In this document: piece by piece, positions 56,918 through 63,535 of the stretch | Numbering within the stretch: the stretch's first letter is position 1 | How the letters are laid out: every line of letters begins with the position of its first letter | DNA from: Legionella cardiaca | GTDB taxonomy: Bacteria > Pseudomonadota > Gammaproteobacteria > Legionellales > Legionellaceae | DNA length: 64,000 nucleotides | Direction of reading: 5' to 3' | NCBI RefSeq assembly: GCF_029026145.1 | Contig: NZ_CP119078.1 | Span: forward strand, 400,501 to 464,500 | Position numbers and translations under genes: made by a program | The notes under the pieces: generated by a model | Databases searched by the model: none | The model's input: the letters and a program-made list of their open reading frames with translations, nothing else | What the model was told of the DNA's origin: nothing

Positions 56918-58567
56918 TTAACTGCCAAACGTAAAGGTATAGACTTCCAGTCCTGCTGTACTCGGAATTACCTCAAGTATTCCTTCAGAAAAGTGTGTAA
57001 ATGATAATACTTCATAAATTGAATGCTTATTAACAGTGATGGTGCTGTCAATTACATCTGCTCCTTTGTTCGCATTAACTAATTTATTATTTAATAGTAC
57101 CTTCACTTGAATGGGCTGGGCAGTGGTATTTCCCATAACAATGAAAACTTTGCGAGCTTTAAAATGTATTCTTAATGGGGCGTTATTTTCTGCAGAAATA
57201 ATTTTATCGGGCGCAATGGTCCAGGCACCCTGTAGGGCCCATGCATTAGGCGGTAGTTGTGCAGGAAAATTATATTGAGTAGTTTTATCATGAATGAGTG
57301 TGGGGCTTAAATTTGGGTTCGCTCTCTCATATCCCAAATAAGTTTCTGGTGTTTCAGTAAACGCATAGCGCTCCTCAGTAAACATCGTGGGCATTCCCAG
57401 CTCGTTTATATTGAGTAAATATCGAATATTATTTTCGGTGACGTCATAATTCCCTTCACCAAAATGGGTATAGACTACTTCACCATTTTTATTAATCAAA
57501 TAATGTGCTGGCCAATAATGGTTGTTGTAATTTCGCCACGTTGCAAATTGATTATCAAGGGCTACCGGATAGTTAATGCCGTAACGTTTTACAGCATTTT
57601 TAACGTTAGCCAAATTTTTCTCAAAATCAAATTCAGGGGAATGAACACCAATAATAATGAAGCCTTGTTTATTGTATTTCTCATACCATGCTTTCAAATA
57701 AGGCAATGTGCGAATGCAATTAATACAAGAGTAAGTCCAAAAATCTATGAGAATAACATGCCCTTTTAAGTCGGACAGTTGTAATGATGGCGAATTAATC
57801 CAGGCCGTTATTCCTTCAACAGGCGGGGCTTTATAAGGAATCCATAACCCTTCCTGCAAGGTAGTCGCAGTCCTTATCGTTGTTTGTGCTGTTGTAGTGG
57901 ATAAAGCGGTCTCTTGATAGATCATATAACTCACAGCAGCAATAATGATGGCCCCTAAAATTTTACGAAAAAGGGAGGCTTTTGTCTTAAAAAAACGAAA
58001 GGTTTCAATTATTTTTATGCCATACAGGGCAATAATTAACATCGGTATTGCAGCACCTAAGGCAAAACTAAGTAACGTAAAGAAACTTATGATTGTCGTT
58101 TTTTGTAAAACCGTTTGTACAATGACTGCTGCTAAAATAGGCCCTGCACAAGGAGTCCAGATAATTGCAATTAGACTTCCTAAAAAAATACCACTAACAA
58201 ACCCTCCTTGGGGATTATTGGCTCGCGATAAATTTGCGCCTGTTCCTATAATGCGTTGCACGAAGTAACTGAATTTTTCGCTTAAATACGTAGACAGCAT
58301 GACTATGCCAAGTAATAAAAGAATGCCATAGGAAATATGACGGATTAGATTAATGTCGATTCCAGAATATTGGACCAGCTGGCGTGAAAAAAAAGCAAAT
58401 AAACTAAAACTGATTACAAATCCCGTAATAATACCAAAGGGCCGTTTCTTGCTCCCACTTAGAGAGCCGGCGAGAACAATAGGTAAGATAGGAAGTATGC
58501 AGGGAGAAAGGATTAAGGCAAAGCCTTCAAAAAATGCTAAAATAACATCGAGAAAATCCACCTGCAT
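56918..58567 (-). CDS. dipZ: DipZ-type fusion: CcdA membrane domain, thioredoxin-like domain and C-terminal domain
   Basis: A 549-residue thiol-disulfide transport protein. Residues 1-215 are a six-helix CcdA/DsbD-beta domain with the paired membrane cysteines Cys23 (LSPC) and Cys140 (TPC). Residues about 255-400 are a TlpA-like thioredoxin domain with the active site Cys281-Ile-Asn-Cys284 (WTYSCINCIRTLPYL). The remaining ~150 residues form the beta domain typical of DipZ. It would carry electrons from cytosolic thioredoxin to periplasmic targets. It sits next to YceI/cytochrome b561 genes, all on the minus strand, 93 bases away, suggesting a periplasmic redox module. Confidence 0.85.
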   Translation of the reverse strand: MQVDFLDVILAFFEGFALILSPCILPILPIVLAGSLSGSKKRPFGIITGFVISFSLFAFFSRQLVQYSGIDINLIRHISYGILLLLGIVMLSTYLSEKFSYFVQRIIGTGANLSRANNPQGGFVSGIFLGSLIAIIWTPCAGPILAAVIVQTVLQKTTIISFFTLLSFALGAAIPMLIIALYGIKIIETFRFFKTKASLFRKILGAIIIAAVSYMIYQETALSTTTAQTTIRTATTLQEGLWIPYKAPPVEGITAWINSPSLQLSDLKGHVILIDFWTYSCINCIRTLPYLKAWYEKYNKQGFIIIGVHSPEFDFEKNLANVKNAVKRYGINYPVALDNQFATWRNYNNHYWPAHYLINKNGEVVYTHFGEGNYDVTENNIRYLLNINELGMPTMFTEERYAFTETPETYLGYERANPNLSPTLIHDKTTQYNFPAQLPPNAWALQGAWTIAPDKIISAENNAPLRIHFKARKVFIVMGNTTAQPIQVKVLLNNKLVNANKGADVIDSTITVNKHSIYEVLSFTHFSEGILEVIPSTAGLEVYTFTFGS

Positions 58568-59236: not shown

Positions 59237-59766
59237 GAAATCATTCTCCGGAGAATATCATCTTTATTGATAAAATGATGCTGCAAAGCTGCTGCGGTAT
59301 GAAGCCCTATAAGACCAATTAAACCATAGGCTAACCAGGCATGTAATTCTTGAAACACGATTCGCAATTCTTCGCTCGGTGCTACGAGGTTAGGTAAAGT
59401 AATCAGTCCAAAAAAAGAAGCAGGTAGTCCTGCTGCGGAAGTTATTAACCATCCAGTAATTGGCAGAGCAAACATCAATCCATAAAAAGTCCAATGAACA
59501 GCACGTGCCGCAAATTTTTCCCAGGCAGGGAGTGATAAATTGGGGGGCACATTGATTAGGCGCCATAGTAGTCTAAGCATGGCAAGGCCTAAAACCAGGA
59601 AACCATATTCTTTATGCCAACCATAAAGCTTAAGTTTCTGCAAACTGATAGGCAGTGTAACCATATAAAGGCCCAGTATAACAAGCCCAATCATCAGCAG
59701 TGCTATTAGCCAGTGGAAACTAATGCTAATTAACCCATAATGGTTTTCACTATTTTTTAGCCGCAT
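59233..59766 (-). CDS. Cytochrome b561
   Basis: A 177-residue di-haem membrane protein of the bacterial b561 family, with four main helices and histidines at expected positions (ISISFHWLIALLMIGLV, GWHKEYGFLVLGLAMLR, ARAVHWTFYGLMFALPITGW, LIGLHTAAALQHHF). It probably moves electrons between quinone and a periplasmic acceptor. ATG 59766 is preferred; it overlaps the upstream YceI stop by 17 bases, with a weak AGAAGA site. A longer frame start at 59823 would add a hydrophilic tail and overlap YceI more. Confidence 0.85.
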   Translation of the reverse strand: MRLKNSENHYGLISISFHWLIALLMIGLVILGLYMVTLPISLQKLKLYGWHKEYGFLVLGLAMLRLLWRLINVPPNLSLPAWEKFAARAVHWTFYGLMFALPITGWLITSAAGLPASFFGLITLPNLVAPSEELRIVFQELHAWLAYGLIGLIGLHTAAALQHHFINKDDILRRMIS

Positions 59767-60376
59767 TATTATCTTCTGGTTTTGTTTTGGCTGCATCGTC
59801 TGCTTTATAAGCTTCTGCCTCAATTTCTATTTTTACTTCATCACCTACATTGGGTAAAAAGGCATTTAAGCCAAAATCTGAACGTTTTATCGTGGTGGTA
59901 GCACTGAAACCTGCAGTCATGCGCTCATTCACTGGATTTTTACCAGCTTTATTAAAGACAACATCCAGAGTTACTGGTTTTGAAACACCACGCAAGGTAA
60001 GGGTGCCATGTACTTTAGCTGAGTTTTTTGAAAGAACATCTACTTTATTGCTTACAAAGGTTGCTGTGGGAAAGCGTGCGGCATCAAAAAAAAGTTTTGC
60101 TTTTAAATGCTTATCTAACTCAGGTATGCCTGTGATGAGGTCTGCAACGTTAACGGTGGCCTTAACCTGACTATTTTCGGGCTTATCTTTATCTAAAATG
60201 AGTGTCCCATTGACATACCATTTTCCAGATTGTGTTGAAAAACCCAGATGTTTCACATGCCAGAGAACATAACTGTGTTCATTGTCAAGCGTGAGAGTTT
60301 CTGCCGCAAAAAGTGGAAAAGAAGCCGGTAGTAGCAACGAGCATAGTAGCAAAGCATTTTTCAGACTTCGTATCAT
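59750..60376 (-). CDS. YceI family periplasmic protein (second copy)
   Basis: A 208-residue YceI protein beginning the YceI-b561-YceI operon. A signal peptide (NALLLCSLLLPASFPLFAAE) leads into LTLDNEHSYVLWHVKHLGFS, with VADLITGIPELDKHLKAKLF, FPTATFVSNK and KRSDFGLNAFLPNVGDEV, classic for the family. A Lys/Asp/Asn-rich tail follows. The two YceI copies differ substantially, so they may bind different ligands. Coupled to cytochrome b561 by overlap. Confidence 0.88.
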   Translation of the reverse strand: MIRSLKNALLLCSLLLPASFPLFAAETLTLDNEHSYVLWHVKHLGFSTQSGKWYVNGTLILDKDKPENSQVKATVNVADLITGIPELDKHLKAKLFFDAARFPTATFVSNKVDVLSKNSAKVHGTLTLRGVSKPVTLDVVFNKAGKNPVNERMTAGFSATTTIKRSDFGLNAFLPNVGDEVKIEIEAEAYKADDAAKTKPEDNNAAKK

Positions 60377-60606: not shown

Positions 60607-61026
60607 ATGAGCTTACCAATTCTAGGCACTACTGCAAAAATAGTATCAAAAAAAATATTTGAGGATTCAAAAAAACCTATGCCTTCCTTTTTTTTCAAGC
60701 CTTTTACGAGTTCTGGAAATGGTGTTATTAGAACAACATCAATTATTTCAGATCTTCCAATATTAGGAATAACTTCTGCTGTAGTAGCATTAATGGCGGG
60801 AGTTGAATTTTTAAAGGCTATTGGAAATTTGGTTACTGGGAATGTTAAAATTTCTTTAGAAAATCTGAAAGGGACAGGTGCAATGCTACTTATTTCAGCT
60901 GTTATTGCTGTTGCAGCCCTGTTTAGTCCAATCATTAATACCATTGATCTAATTGGTGGCGTGATAAATAGTGCACCGGCATGTTGTGTATGTTCTGATG
61001 AACAGCGTTCTCCGCAATTAATCTAA
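60607..61026 (+). CDS. Small hydrophobic protein, unknown
   Basis: A 139-residue protein with two hydrophobic segments, about residues 53-68 (ILGITSAVVALMAGVEFL) and 96-121 (AMLLISAVIAVAALFSPIIN), and a C-terminal Cys-rich bit (ACCVCSDEQR). It follows a TAGGATAATTT ribosome region and ATG 60607. An opposite-strand frame over the same bases looks less coding. No family recognised; a small membrane protein or effector is possible. Confidence 0.45.
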   Translation: MSLPILGTTAKIVSKKIFEDSKKPMPSFFFKPFTSSGNGVIRTTSIISDLPILGITSAVVALMAGVEFLKAIGNLVTGNVKISLENLKGTGAMLLISAVIAVAALFSPIINTIDLIGGVINSAPACCVCSDEQRSPQLI

Positions 61027-61130: not shown

Positions 61131-61424
61131 TTATTGCTGTTCAGACGAGGATTGTTTATTTTCCGCAGTTAAACTTCCCCCTACAAGCCTGTTGCATACA
61201 CCTTTAGGAAGAAAAATGTAGGCATCTGCTTGATTATCTTTAGTTGATGAACTGGCGCACGAAGAGGTAGCTGTTGCACAATCGTTCATGCCCGCTTTAA
61301 CAACGCCATAACATTTTTCAGTTTCTTGGGGTGATGATTGTTGACTGGCAAGGACGGGATTTGCGGTTATAAGCGTTAAGAAAGCGGTGATAGCTGAAGC
61401 AACAAGTATGTCCTTTTGTTTCAT
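61131..61424 (-). CDS. bufA1: BufA1-family bufferin-type precursor peptide (DUF2282)
   Basis: A 97-residue exported Cys-containing protein starting at ATG 61424, with AAGGAG 8 bases upstream. The signal peptide (residues about 5-26, ILVASAITAFLTLITANPVLA) is followed by KCYGVVKAGMNDCATATSSC and KGVCNRLVGGSL, with cysteines 38, 49, 56 and 77. This is the DUF2282/BufA1 pattern. In Caulobacter the bufferins are large RiPPs whose Cys residues are turned into thiooxazoles by an MNIO enzyme and which bind copper; the same role is inferred. It is the last gene of the operon, 13 bases after bufC. Confidence 0.85.
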   Translation of the reverse strand: MKQKDILVASAITAFLTLITANPVLASQQSSPQETEKCYGVVKAGMNDCATATSSCASSSTKDNQADAYIFLPKGVCNRLVGGSLTAENKQSSSEQQ

Positions 61425-61437
61425 CAATGACTCCTTA

Positions 61438-62205
61438 TTAAAGTTTAATTTTTGCTATTAATCCTGATTGTATCCAACTTTTTAATAATGAAGCTGCCTG
61501 TAAGCCAACTTCTTCCTCGCTAAACCATTCACATAGGCCGGCACAAATTTCACCAAAACTTGCACCTTGAAGCATCGCATTTATAGCCCATGCTTCATCT
61601 TCAGTTAAAGAATAAAAACGACTTAGATAATTACTTCGCCAGATTACCCAACTGACTGACTTTGTATTTTCTATCAAGTTTTCTGGTTGTTGTTCGTTGG
61701 CAACCGCTTGCCATATAGGAACGATATTCCAATAGAAATGAACTTGCTGTAGAGATGGGTGTGGGGTGAAAGTCATATTCGCCCAGCAATCAGGTGAAAT
61801 TGCCGCCATCTCTTCGATGGTTAGCACGGGTGCATCTGCAGCATCAAAAGCCAGGGTTAACCCCCACTCAAATTCTGCAAGCTCGGCCAGAGCATGTTTC
61901 TCCTGGGTCTTTAAATAATGACTAAAATTGTCACCAAACCATCGAATAGAACGGTAGGAGGAGGGATTTTTTTCCAGATAATCATTACCCATTTCATAAA
62001 AGGACTCTGAGCCGACATAGTTTTTAAAGACAGGATAATTATTGGCCAAACATTCTAATAATCTAGTACGATAGGCATCAAGATAAATATTTAAACGAAG
62101 AGTGGCGGGTATTTTTTCAGAATCGACTATGCCTTGTTTAATATTGGATTGACCATTAAGTAAATAGTTCTGAAACTGTTCTTGTAAGTCGAGTAACTTA
62201 TTCAT
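61438..62205 (-). CDS. bufC: HvfC/BufC-family partner protein (DUF2063)
   Basis: A 255-residue cytosolic protein. The N-terminus (DLQEQFQNYLLNG, then RLNIYLDAYRTRLLECLANN and NYPVFKNYVGSESFYEM) is the DUF2063 domain that accompanies DUF692/MNIO enzymes; the C-terminal part is helical. Partner proteins of this family are thought to deliver the precursor to the maturase. Its ATG overlaps the stop of bufB (ATGA), so the two are coupled, as expected for an enzyme-partner pair. Confidence 0.85.
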   Translation of the reverse strand: MNKLLDLQEQFQNYLLNGQSNIKQGIVDSEKIPATLRLNIYLDAYRTRLLECLANNYPVFKNYVGSESFYEMGNDYLEKNPSSYRSIRWFGDNFSHYLKTQEKHALAELAEFEWGLTLAFDAADAPVLTIEEMAAISPDCWANMTFTPHPSLQQVHFYWNIVPIWQAVANEQQPENLIENTKSVSWVIWRSNYLSRFYSLTEDEAWAINAMLQGASFGEICAGLCEWFSEEEVGLQAASLLKSWIQSGLIAKIKL

Positions 62206-63056
62206 AATGCTAACTCGTTAGCAAAAGTTTTATTAACAATGTTTTTGGCTGTTTCGAGTTCGTCTAACAATTCTGCTAATGGCGGAATCTTATCGTCCCG
62301 TTCTATCATGGTGGAGATGGGCCCCAATCGTTTTATTGTTTCTGCATATAAATCCCAAACAGGTTGGATTACAGGCGCGTCATGTGTATCAATAATATAA
62401 TTGCCATAATCAGAATGACCAGCCAAATGAATTTGAGCAATACGATGGGCAGGTACTGTATTAATATAATCCATCGCATTAAAATCATGGTTTACAGAGC
62501 TGACATAGATGTTATTAACATCAAATAATAAGTAACAATCGGCGCGATTAGCTATTTCGGAGATAAATTCCCACTCACTCATTTCTGAATCTTTGTAACT
62601 TAAATAACTTGATACATTTTCAATCAAGATTTGTCGTCCCAAATAATCTTGAATCGTATCAATACGCGCAACAATATGTTTAATTGCTTCCATGGTATAG
62701 GGGACAGGAAGCAGATCATGCATATTTAGGCCTTTAATTCCGGTCCAGCATAAATGATCAGAAATCCATTGCGGTTCTACACGCCTCGCTAAATCTTTTA
62801 ATTGCTTTAAATAATCCCAGTCAAGAGGATCTGAGCTACCAATAGATAAAGAAACTCCATGCATGACAATAGGATAGTCCTGACGAATTTTATCCAAAAA
62901 ATACAATGGCTTTCCGCCAGGGATTAAATAATTTTCTGTAATTATTTCAAGCCAGTCTAAGGCCGGTTTTTGCTTTAAAATTTCCTCATAATGCTCAGTT
63001 CTTAATCCAAGACCAAAACCAAGATAAGGTAAATTATGTTTTTTGTGAGAAATCAT
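62202..63056 (-). CDS. bufB: MNIO-family bufferin maturase (DUF692)
   Basis: A 284-residue TIM-barrel multinuclear non-haem iron oxidase. Family landmarks are LGFGLGLRTEHYEEIL (12-27), MHGVSLSIGS with His66, WISDHLCW with His101, LIENVSSYL with Glu146, LFDVNNIYVSS with Asp179, IAQIHLAGHSD with His210 and IIDTHDAPV, the set that coordinates the iron cluster. Members modify precursor Cys residues. No clear ribosome site lies before ATG 63056, and a 15-bp hairpin (63071-63105) separates it from bufA2, which should lower its expression relative to the precursor. Confidence 0.88.
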   Translation of the reverse strand: MISHKKHNLPYLGFGLGLRTEHYEEILKQKPALDWLEIITENYLIPGGKPLYFLDKIRQDYPIVMHGVSLSIGSSDPLDWDYLKQLKDLARRVEPQWISDHLCWTGIKGLNMHDLLPVPYTMEAIKHIVARIDTIQDYLGRQILIENVSSYLSYKDSEMSEWEFISEIANRADCYLLFDVNNIYVSSVNHDFNAMDYINTVPAHRIAQIHLAGHSDYGNYIIDTHDAPVIQPVWDLYAETIKRLGPISTMIERDDKIPPLAELLDELETAKNIVNKTFANELAL

Positions 63057-63070
63057 TATTTAGACTTAAT

Positions 63071-63105
63071 ATAATAAGCTAGGTTATATAAACCTAGCTT
63101 ATTAT
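63071..63105 (-). terminator. Intra-operon attenuator/processing hairpin between bufA2 and bufB
   Basis: A perfect 15-bp stem (63071-63085 / 63091-63105) with a 5-base loop lies 7 bases beyond the bufA2 stop and 15 bases before bufB. It lacks a long T run, so partial termination or mRNA stabilisation are both possible. Confidence 0.65.
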
Positions 63106-63112
63106 TTCAATA

Positions 63113-63433
63113 TTATTGAGAAGAACTGTCAGAATTATTGTCGCTGCTGCTGTTGTTATTATTGTTGTTGCTGTCTGATGCATCCACAACAGTACCACCA
63201 GCTTTTTGACATTCTTCTTTAGTCATGTTGCTGATACCTTGACCTTTGCAAGAGTTTTGTCCTTTGCAAGCGTTAGTTGCAGTTTTGCAAGCGCTTTGAC
63301 CTTTACAAGCATTAACACCTTTACATTGAACGGTCTGGGCATCAGAAGCAGAAGAAGCGAATACTGGAGCCATAGAAAACATTGCAGCCGCACCAACAGC
63401 CAATGCTGCACCTGTCAATTTGATTTTGTTCAT
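63113..63433 (-). CDS. bufA2: BufA2-family bufferin-type precursor, Cys-rich
   Basis: A 106-residue exported peptide, first gene of the operon. A signal peptide (residues about 4-27, LTGAALAVGAAAMFSMAPVFA) is followed by a Cys repeat (QCKGVNACKGQSACKTATNA, then CKGQNSCKGQG) with cysteines 37, 43, 49, 56 and 62 spaced by 5-6 residues, then Cys75. Residues 88-106 are a Ser/Asn/Asp low-complexity tail. The repeated CKG/CK pattern is that of BufA2-type precursors, predicted to carry modified cysteines and chelate copper or another metal in the periplasm. Strong own promoter at 63506-63535. Confidence 0.85.
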   Translation of the reverse strand: MNKIKLTGAALAVGAAAMFSMAPVFASSASDAQTVQCKGVNACKGQSACKTATNACKGQNSCKGQGISNMTKEECQKAGGTVVDASDSNNNNNNSSSDNNSDSSSQ

Positions 63434-63505
63434 AACAATTCCTTCGTTAATAGATTCAATCTTGAACCATTAAAAGTGATTAATGGTGCCTATCTCAGCA
63501 GGAAT

Positions 63506-63535
63506 AGTGTAGAGATAGTAAAATAAAACTGTCAA
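63506..63535 (-). promoter_or_regulatory. Promoter of the bufferin operon
   Basis: On the minus strand a perfect TTGACA (63530-63535) is followed after 18 bases by TACACT (63506-63511), a good housekeeping-sigma promoter about 72 bases before bufA2. No metal-regulator operator could be assigned. Confidence 0.6.

What the first reader, a model, noticed from the sequence alone, without database searches (positions are those of the whole stretch)
61131..63535. Complete bufferin-type RiPP operon with two different Cys-rich precursors flanking the MNIO enzyme
Seen: bufA2 (six Cys, five of them in a 5-6-residue-spaced series) - bufB (DUF692/MNIO) - bufC (DUF2063) - bufA1 (DUF2282, four Cys), same strand, coupled or closely spaced, behind one good promoter. 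Known: in Caulobacter, MNIO enzymes convert bufferin cysteines to thiooxazoles and the products protect against copper. Inferred: this intracellular pathogen uses two distinct periplasmic metal-chelating RiPPs, possibly against copper loading of its vacuole. Having both precursor classes in one operon lets a single maturase be tested on two substrate types.
Basis: partly seen in the sequence, partly recalled or inferred. Interest (0 to 1): 0.9.

Follow-up and report, generated by a model that had tools for sequence, protein, structure and literature searches.

The report
Bufferin operon joined to lipid-defence genes
A Legionella-type bacterium keeps two different copper-binding peptide genes beside the only enzyme of the needed kind in its genome, and the second peptide gene is part of a small gene set, shared with many relatives, that probably protects cell membranes from oxidation.

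Summary
The operon is real: bufA2-bufB-bufC-bufA1, minus strand, behind a conserved promoter. The one-contig genome holds one MNIO, one DUF2282 precursor and one BufA2 over cut-off. BufB is Buf2-type by motif and tree, so BufA1, if modified, is served by an enzyme whose relatives serve the other precursor class. Of 38 Legionellaceae genomes with DUF2282 and exactly one MNIO, 31 have a Buf2-type one. One relative has lost the bufA2 core but keeps bufB, bufC and bufA1, though another Cys-rich protein exists there. YceI/b561 is the BcnA/LcoA lipid-peroxyl-radical defence of Burkholderia (PMC9113575, abstract and passages). Best reading: one maturase serves two bufferins, and BufA1 is the copper-binding arm of an envelope lipid-peroxidation defence. 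Modification, copper binding and that function are inferred, not shown; G096 keeps the unit without any MNIO. The vacuole idea is unsupported. New variant of a known kind.

The parts
63506..63535 (-). sigma-70-like promoter TTGACA-N18-TACACT of the operon
   Evidence: TTGACA upstream of bufA2 in 31 of 35 Legionellaceae loci compared
63113..63433 (-). bufA2, Cys-Lys (Buf2) bufferin precursor, 106 aa, signal peptide by eye, six Cys, Ser/Asn-rich tail
   Evidence: NF050166 91.7 bits over cut-off 60; Cys positions
63066..63110 (-). stem-loop between bufA2 and bufB, possibly setting precursor over enzyme dosage
   Evidence: -20.8 kcal/mol, z -6.66; a hairpin at this place in 20 of 20 loci folded, z -2.6 to -7.2 against mononucleotide shuffles
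62202..63056 (-). bufB, MNIO maturase of Buf2 type (ERDD, D254-D255); the only MNIO of the genome
   Evidence: PF05114 382.3, NF050167 393.7 bits
61438..62205 (-). bufC, DUF2063 partner protein, 4-nt overlap with bufB
   Evidence: PF09836 69.5 bits
61131..61424 (-). bufA1, DUF2282 (Buf1) bufferin precursor, four Cys, signal peptide by eye; the only DUF2282 of the genome
   Evidence: PF10048 78.2 bits
60607..61026 (+). lone 139-aa ORF wedged between bufA1 and yceI in this species; no family match
   Evidence: 0-6 shared 12-mers with each of nine relatives' loci
59750..60376 (-). first yceI lipocalin gene of the bufA1 unit
   Evidence: PF04264 149.4 bits
59233..59823 (-). cytochrome b561 gene of the bufA1 unit (ORF as listed; true start probably later)
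   Evidence: PF01292 108 bits
58661..59236 (-). second yceI lipocalin gene of the bufA1 unit
   Evidence: PF04264 115 bits
56918..58567 (-). DsbD-TM/thioredoxin-like (DipZ-like) gene, recurrent neighbour, membership uncertain
   Evidence: PF02683, PF08534, PF17991; near the operon in several relatives

Best explanation
The locus joins two units. Unit 1 (bufA2-bufB-bufC) makes a Buf2 bufferin and carries the genome's only MNIO. Unit 2 (bufA1-yceI-cytochrome b561-yceI) carries a Buf1 (DUF2282) bufferin with a BcnA/LcoA-type lipid-peroxyl-radical defence. The BufB-BufC complex, although of Buf2 type, modifies the Cys residues of both precursors before Sec export, in cis here and in trans where the units lie apart. 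In the periplasm BufA2 is a bulk copper buffer, and BufA1 withholds Cu(I) from membrane lipid hydroperoxides while the YceI proteins (isoprenoid-binding lipocalins) and cytochrome b561 quench the lipid radicals. Shown: gene content, single MNIO, enzyme type, recurrent arrangement, conserved bufA1-yceI adjacency. Inferred: Cys modification of BufA1 by BufB, copper binding, export, and the joint action of BufA1 with YceI/b561.
For: One MNIO, one DUF2282, one BufA2 over cut-off in the genome. Enzyme type: 102 of 105 MNIO ORFs with bufA2 upstream read ERDD; 7 of 7 with bufA1 upstream read EWD; 14 of 14 with bufA1 downstream read ERD then D (12), G or N (some species counted twice). The bufA1-upstream enzymes form a separate clade (100/92). 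31 of 38 genomes with DUF2282 and one MNIO have only an ERDD enzyme, 9 with bufA1 linked and 22 not. 70 of 71 DUF2282 genomes have an MNIO, against 83 of 143 overall. G022: the bufA2 core is deleted, yet bufB (sole MNIO), bufC and bufA1 are open, with pairwise dN/dS of 0.08-0.38. Four Cys in 41 of 41 linked or unlinked bufA1 compared, chosen by a pattern that already asks for two of them. Unit 2: yceI/b561 within 150 nt after bufA1 in 12 of 14 linked and 28 of 33 unlinked loci, 0 of 6 classic loci. The 28 lie in five neighbourhood groups of 11, 7, 5, 4 and 1 loci. In G016 bufA1 and the yceI-b561 genes are broken together; in G004 they are missing together from this locus (the rest of G004 was not searched for yceI).
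Against: No chemistry was seen. G096 keeps bufA1-yceI-b561 without any MNIO, so BufA1 may work unmodified. The specificity residue differs between Buf1- and Buf2-type enzymes (PMC13097082 sections 13, 14), and a Lys-Cys enzyme did not process NACKG sites there, so cross-family action cannot be assumed. No significant signal-peptide convergence of these BufA1 on BufA2 (p 0.13). TTGACA is upstream of 31 of 35 bufA2 but only 2 of 29 unlinked bufA1, so the units do not share that promoter when apart. The family co-occurrence is confounded by ancestry. In G022 the deletion may be recent (bufB dS to G156 0.11) or an assembly fault, and a GCKGC-repeat protein there is another possible substrate. In the window itself about 750 nt with an opposite ORF separate bufA1 from yceI. 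In G001, G005, G014 and G020 bufA1 sits with yceI but without b561.
Confidence: 0.45

Rival explanations
1. BufB-BufC modifies only BufA2. BufA1 of the yceI unit works as an unmodified Cys protein, for example as a thiol copper ligand or redox partner of cytochrome b561.
For: bufA1 is followed by yceI/b561 at 40 of 47 loci but linked to bufC at 14 of 47. G096 keeps bufA1-yceI-b561 with no MNIO. BufB is of the type linked to Cys-Lys sites (PMC13097082 sections 13, 14).
Against: 70 of 71 DUF2282 genomes have an MNIO. G022 keeps bufB and bufC after losing the bufA2 core. The two central Cys, the modified ones in Buf1 according to PMC12452194 section 14, are kept in the 41 of 41 compared (pattern-chosen).
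Confidence: 0.27
2. bufA1-yceI-b561-yceI adjacency is inherited gene order without joint function; the operon is simply a bufferin cluster with a spare second precursor.
For: All loci with the unit are from one bacterial family; most neighbourhoods are shared by several species. The window's own copy is split by an insert. Five of 33 unlinked bufA1 lack yceI/b561.
Against: The unit persists in five unlinked neighbourhood groups and at the bufC junction; bufA1-yceI gaps are mostly 2-51 nt; bufA1 and yceI-b561 are missing or broken together at the operon in G004 and G016. In G001, G005, G014 and G020 bufA1 sits with both yceI genes while b561 stays behind bufC, which argues more for bufA1-yceI than for bufA1-b561.
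Confidence: 0.15
3. One reading: two periplasmic metal chelators that protect this intracellular bacterium from copper in its vacuole.
For: Buf1 of Caulobacter improves growth in copper excess (PMC12452194, section 21); the Legionella GIG operon promoter responds to copper and gold (PMC5413113, abstract).
Against: No copper regulator or efflux gene among the ten ORFs scanned around the operon; host copper status did not change Legionella infection in Dictyostelium (PMC5770829, abstract and passages); close enzymes occur in many free-living bacteria.
Confidence: 0.08

Closest known systems
Buf2 (BufA2-BufB2-BufC2) bufferin clusters, e.g. Caulobacter vibrioides; 'Cys-Lys captophorins'
   Same: Gene order A2-B-C, six-Cys precursor, ERDD-type MNIO, DUF2063 partner
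   Different: A DUF2282 precursor follows bufC; 0 of the 80 loci show that (some are cut at contig ends); no DoxX
Buf1 (DUF2282) clusters / GIG operons, incl. L. pneumophila lpg2105-2108
   Same: DUF2282 precursor with four Cys, MNIO and DUF2063 partner
   Different: Classic clusters put DUF2282 before an EWD-type MNIO, in three of five annotated plasmid loci with DoxX; here it comes after bufC and the MNIO is ERDD-type
BcnA/LcoA (YceI lipocalin, cytochrome b561) lipid-peroxyl-radical detoxification of Burkholderia cenocepacia (PMC9113575, abstract and passages)
   Same: YceI and cytochrome b561 genes side by side, two YceI paralogues
   Different: Here yceI flanks b561 on both sides and bufA1 stands in front; the main text names neither Legionella nor DUF2282 (0 occurrences)

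Membership tests
Buf2 bufferin cluster | BufA2 precursor over the curated cut-off, six Cys | tested here: met
   NF050166 91.7 vs 60 bits; six Cys
Buf2 bufferin cluster | MNIO of the BufB family | tested here: met
   NF050167 393.7 vs 310; PF05114 382.3 vs 25
Buf2 bufferin cluster | Buf2-type enzyme (Asp after the catalytic Asp; clade) | tested here: met
   ERDD, D254-D255; lies with bufA2-associated enzymes, Buf1-type clade separate at 100/92
Buf2 bufferin cluster | DUF2063 + RRE partner (PME-type 1) | tested here: inconclusive
   DUF2063 69.5 bits met; HvfC model 41.6 bits under its cut-off 142; fold not predicted, machine busy
Buf1 bufferin | DUF2282 with four conserved Cys | tested here: met
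   PF10048 78.2 vs 22.4; four Cys
Buf1 bufferin | own Buf1-type (EWD) MNIO downstream | tested here: not met
   bufA1 is last of the four genes and the sole MNIO is ERDD-type; hence a Buf1-type precursor, not a classic Buf1 cluster
Bufferin (either) | Cys-derived thiooxazoles, about 4 Da lost per modified Cys | not testable with these tools
   needs mass spectrometry
Bufferin (either) | Cu binding and protection from copper | not testable with these tools
   needs biochemistry
Bufferin (either) | Sec signal peptide | tested here: inconclusive
   both N-termini look like Sec signal peptides (basic residues, hydrophobic stretch, AxA-like end) by eye; no predictor run
BcnA/LcoA system | linked YceI lipocalin and cytochrome b561 | tested here: met
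   PF04264 twice, PF01292 once, adjacent; confirmed by Pfam in ten proteins of relatives
BcnA/LcoA system | lowers lipid peroxidation | not testable with these tools
   phenotype

The most novel reading that the evidence does not exclude
A copper-binding RiPP is a dedicated part of a bacterial lipid-peroxidation defence: bufA1-yceI-cytochrome b561-yceI is a portable unit in which a bufferin removes the copper that would split lipid hydroperoxides while YceI and b561 quench the radicals, and its bufferin is matured by an MNIO of the other bufferin family, in cis or from a distant locus.
Probability: 0.35. Interest if true: 0.75.

Novelty: new variant of a known kind. Interest (0 to 1): 0.6.

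Why it matters
PMC12452194 leaves open whether one MNIO pair can modify several precursors, and whether precursors without their own MNIO are modified at all (its sections 20 and 21, read). Legionellaceae offer a natural test set: 31 genomes, one per species, with a DUF2282 precursor and only a Buf2-type maturase, one that lost the BufA2 core yet kept the enzyme, and one that lost the enzyme yet kept bufA1. The bufA1-yceI-b561 unit also ties bufferins, known for copper, to lipid-peroxide defence; I found no paper on that link in searches of the held library (listings only, apart from the papers named here).

Tried and rejected
Vacuole copper idea: no support among the ORFs scanned; literature against. 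Signal-peptide convergence between these BufA1 and BufA2: scored with a BufA2 signal-peptide HMM, p 0.13, not significant. Shared promoter between unlinked bufA1 and bufA2: TTGACA in 2 of 29 against 31 of 35; nothing else seen by eye, no motif finder run. BufA1 tree: too few columns; linked and unlinked bufA1 fall in one lineage at 96/77, with two classic ones of G004/G016 inside, unresolved. Specificity residue in bufA1-linked enzymes: 2 of 14 deviate (ERDG, ERDN) against 2 of 94 with bufA2 alone, too few to use. G102 was counted 'same-down' and dropped: no bufA1-pattern ORF follows its bufC (L307) and its DUF2282 lies by an EWD enzyme (L310). G152/G153 have no BufA2 over cut-off, but three MNIOs each and a GCKGC-repeat protein, so they are not used as proof. 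In the typed MNIO list four pieces were left out (in G008, G105, G129, G135); 'unlinked' there means over 6 kb away or on another contig, and several assemblies are in many contigs. G062 and G129 MNIOs are partial and untyped. One search printed scores as E-values and so wrong paralogue labels; its distances and counts stand. One search counts some species twice (same genomes under G and named records). One search left out 50 of the 152 enzymes, named ERDD loci picked by number only. Solved structures: BufB matches eight distinct sequences, best 3bww; BufC and BufA1 match none.
Full report
What is there. bufB and bufC overlap by four bases, bufA1 starts 13 bases after bufC behind TAAGGAG, and one promoter-like element TTGACA-N18-TACACT precedes bufA2. 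The scan finds no more such sites than chance, but TTGACA stands upstream of bufA2 in 31 of 35 Legionellaceae loci compared. Between bufA2 and bufB lies a long stem-loop; a hairpin of varying sequence stands there in 20 of 20 loci folded, which would suit a higher dose of precursor than of enzyme.

Whose genome. One relative in the same GTDB genus, G020, has a contig of the same length as the Legionella maceachernii record (396,527 bases), so the window comes from that Legionella-type genus; the species was not determined. The genome is one contig of 3,477,232 bases. It holds one MNIO, one DUF2282 gene and one BufA2 over cut-off.

Which kind of enzyme. In 152 MNIO ORFs from the loci gathered (some species counted twice), the residues around the catalytic Asp tell the classes apart: 102 of 105 enzymes with bufA2 upstream read ERDD, 7 of 7 with bufA1 upstream read EWD, and 14 of 14 with bufA1 downstream read ERD followed by D (12), G or N. 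PMC13097082 (abstract, sections 13 and 14, passages) names the residue after the catalytic Asp as a specificity site, Asp in the Cys-Lys class. The window's BufB reads ERDD. In a tree of 102 of these MNIOs the bufA1-upstream enzymes fall in one clade (100/92) and the window's enzyme lies in a fork (95/93) of Legionellaceae bufA2-type enzymes, with one record labelled Bacteroidetes. So BufA1 here depends, if it is modified at all, on an enzyme whose relatives serve the other precursor class.

How general. In 143 Legionellaceae genomes, 83 have an MNIO, 71 a DUF2282 gene, 62 a BufA2 over cut-off. Of the 71 with DUF2282, 70 have an MNIO; G096 does not. Common ancestry inflates this. Thirty-eight genomes have DUF2282 and exactly one MNIO; 31 of these enzymes are ERDD, 5 EWD (G059, G060, G142, G143, G158), 2 partial. 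Of the 31, bufA1 follows bufC in 9 and is elsewhere in 22. Over all, 14 genomes have bufA1 after bufC. In the 80 loci the arrangement occurs in 0.

Natural experiments. In G022, with one MNIO and one DUF2282, an internal deletion has taken the whole CKG part of bufA2, while bufB, bufC and bufA1 are open; bufB against G154 has dN/dS 0.083, against G156 0.26 with little divergence. This fits an enzyme kept for BufA1; a recent deletion, an assembly fault, or another substrate are not excluded, since G022 also encodes a GCKGC-repeat protein. In G096 the enzyme is gone and bufA1 stays: the opposite case, which favours an unmodified role or a recent loss. In G016 the signal-peptide part of bufA1 is out of frame with the rest and in G004 bufA1 is absent from the operon; both have a separate classic Buf1 cluster with an EWD enzyme.

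The second unit. bufA1 is followed by yceI, cytochrome b561 and yceI. Within 150 nt after bufA1, yceI or b561 is present in 12 of 14 linked loci, 28 of 33 unlinked loci and 0 of 6 classic loci. The two linked exceptions are the window itself, where a 139-aa ORF on the other strand lies in a gap of about 750 nt, and G016, where the unit is broken. The five unlinked exceptions are L311, L333, L337, L338 and L339. Pfam confirms YceI or cytochrome b561 in ten proteins checked from relatives. The 28 unlinked units fall in five neighbourhood groups of 11, 7, 5, 4 and 1 loci. In G001, G005, G014 and G020 b561 stands behind bufC while bufA1 sits elsewhere with yceI genes, which suggests that the linked order is old in this genus and was broken up later. 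In five annotated plasmid loci from other bacteria DUF2282 stands before the MNIO, in one with three genes between, and no YceI is annotated; one stretch had no annotation.

What it does. YceI and cytochrome b561 are the BcnA and LcoA of a system that lowers lipid peroxidation in Burkholderia cenocepacia (PMC9113575, abstract and passages); most YceI structures hold an isoprenoid such as ubiquinone-8, and copper or iron ions turn a hydroperoxide into radicals (same passages). A Cu(I)-binding bufferin next to such a system is therefore sensible: one part removes the catalyst, the other the radicals. That BufA1 binds copper rests on Buf1 of Caulobacter (PMC12452194, section 21), not on anything measured here. 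Other bufferin clusters carry related functions: MsrQ in Methylomagnum, an organic hydroperoxide resistance gene in Paraburkholderia.

Compared with print. PMC12452194 (abstract, sections 13, 14, 18-21 read) reports tandem precursors, genomes with several precursors and one MNIO, and L. pneumophila subsp. fraseri as the richest genome; it asks whether one enzyme serves several precursors. It first took precursors that precede the MNIO gene and then collected family members in any setting. PMC5413113 (abstract, section 14) describes the copper- and gold-responsive GIG operon of L. pneumophila and an H3 operon of three genes without the DoxX gene. The mixed A2-B-C-A1 order and the bufA1-yceI-b561 unit were not found in the parts of papers read nor in the listings of searches; figures and supplements were not seen, and subscription papers are mostly not held.

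Noticed in passing
L131 3805-4359, L133 5281-5940, L132, L134, L307 (G010, G020, G014, G005, G102): Long repeat precursors with up to 24 CK[SGT] motifs (219 aa, 24 Cys in L133) upstream of ERDD-type MNIOs that form a sub-clade (100/100).
   Followed up: partly
upstream of bufA2 in L287, L292, L306 and upstream of the bufA2 remnant in L130: A Fur-box-like stretch (ATGAGAATCATTTT) in the promoter region, kept even where the bufA2 core is deleted; suggests iron control in that genus. The likeness to a Fur box is recalled, not tested.
   Followed up: no
L350, L351, L352, L354, L363 (G153, G152, G096, G106, G022): Small signal-peptide-like proteins with GCKGC-type repeats, not within the MNIO loci seen, one in a genome without any MNIO.
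   Followed up: partly
window 60607-61026: 139-aa plus-strand ORF without Pfam or NCBIfam match between bufA1 and yceI; not beside the operon in the nine relatives' loci compared.
   Followed up: partly
window 56918-58567: DsbD-TM/thioredoxin (DipZ-like) gene is a recurrent neighbour of the operon, next after bufC in four of ten loci without the bufA1 unit.
   Followed up: partly
L343 (G015) and L335 (G096): G015 has a bufA1 whose yceI neighbours are in pieces; G096 has bufA1-yceI-b561 without any MNIO.
   Followed up: partly
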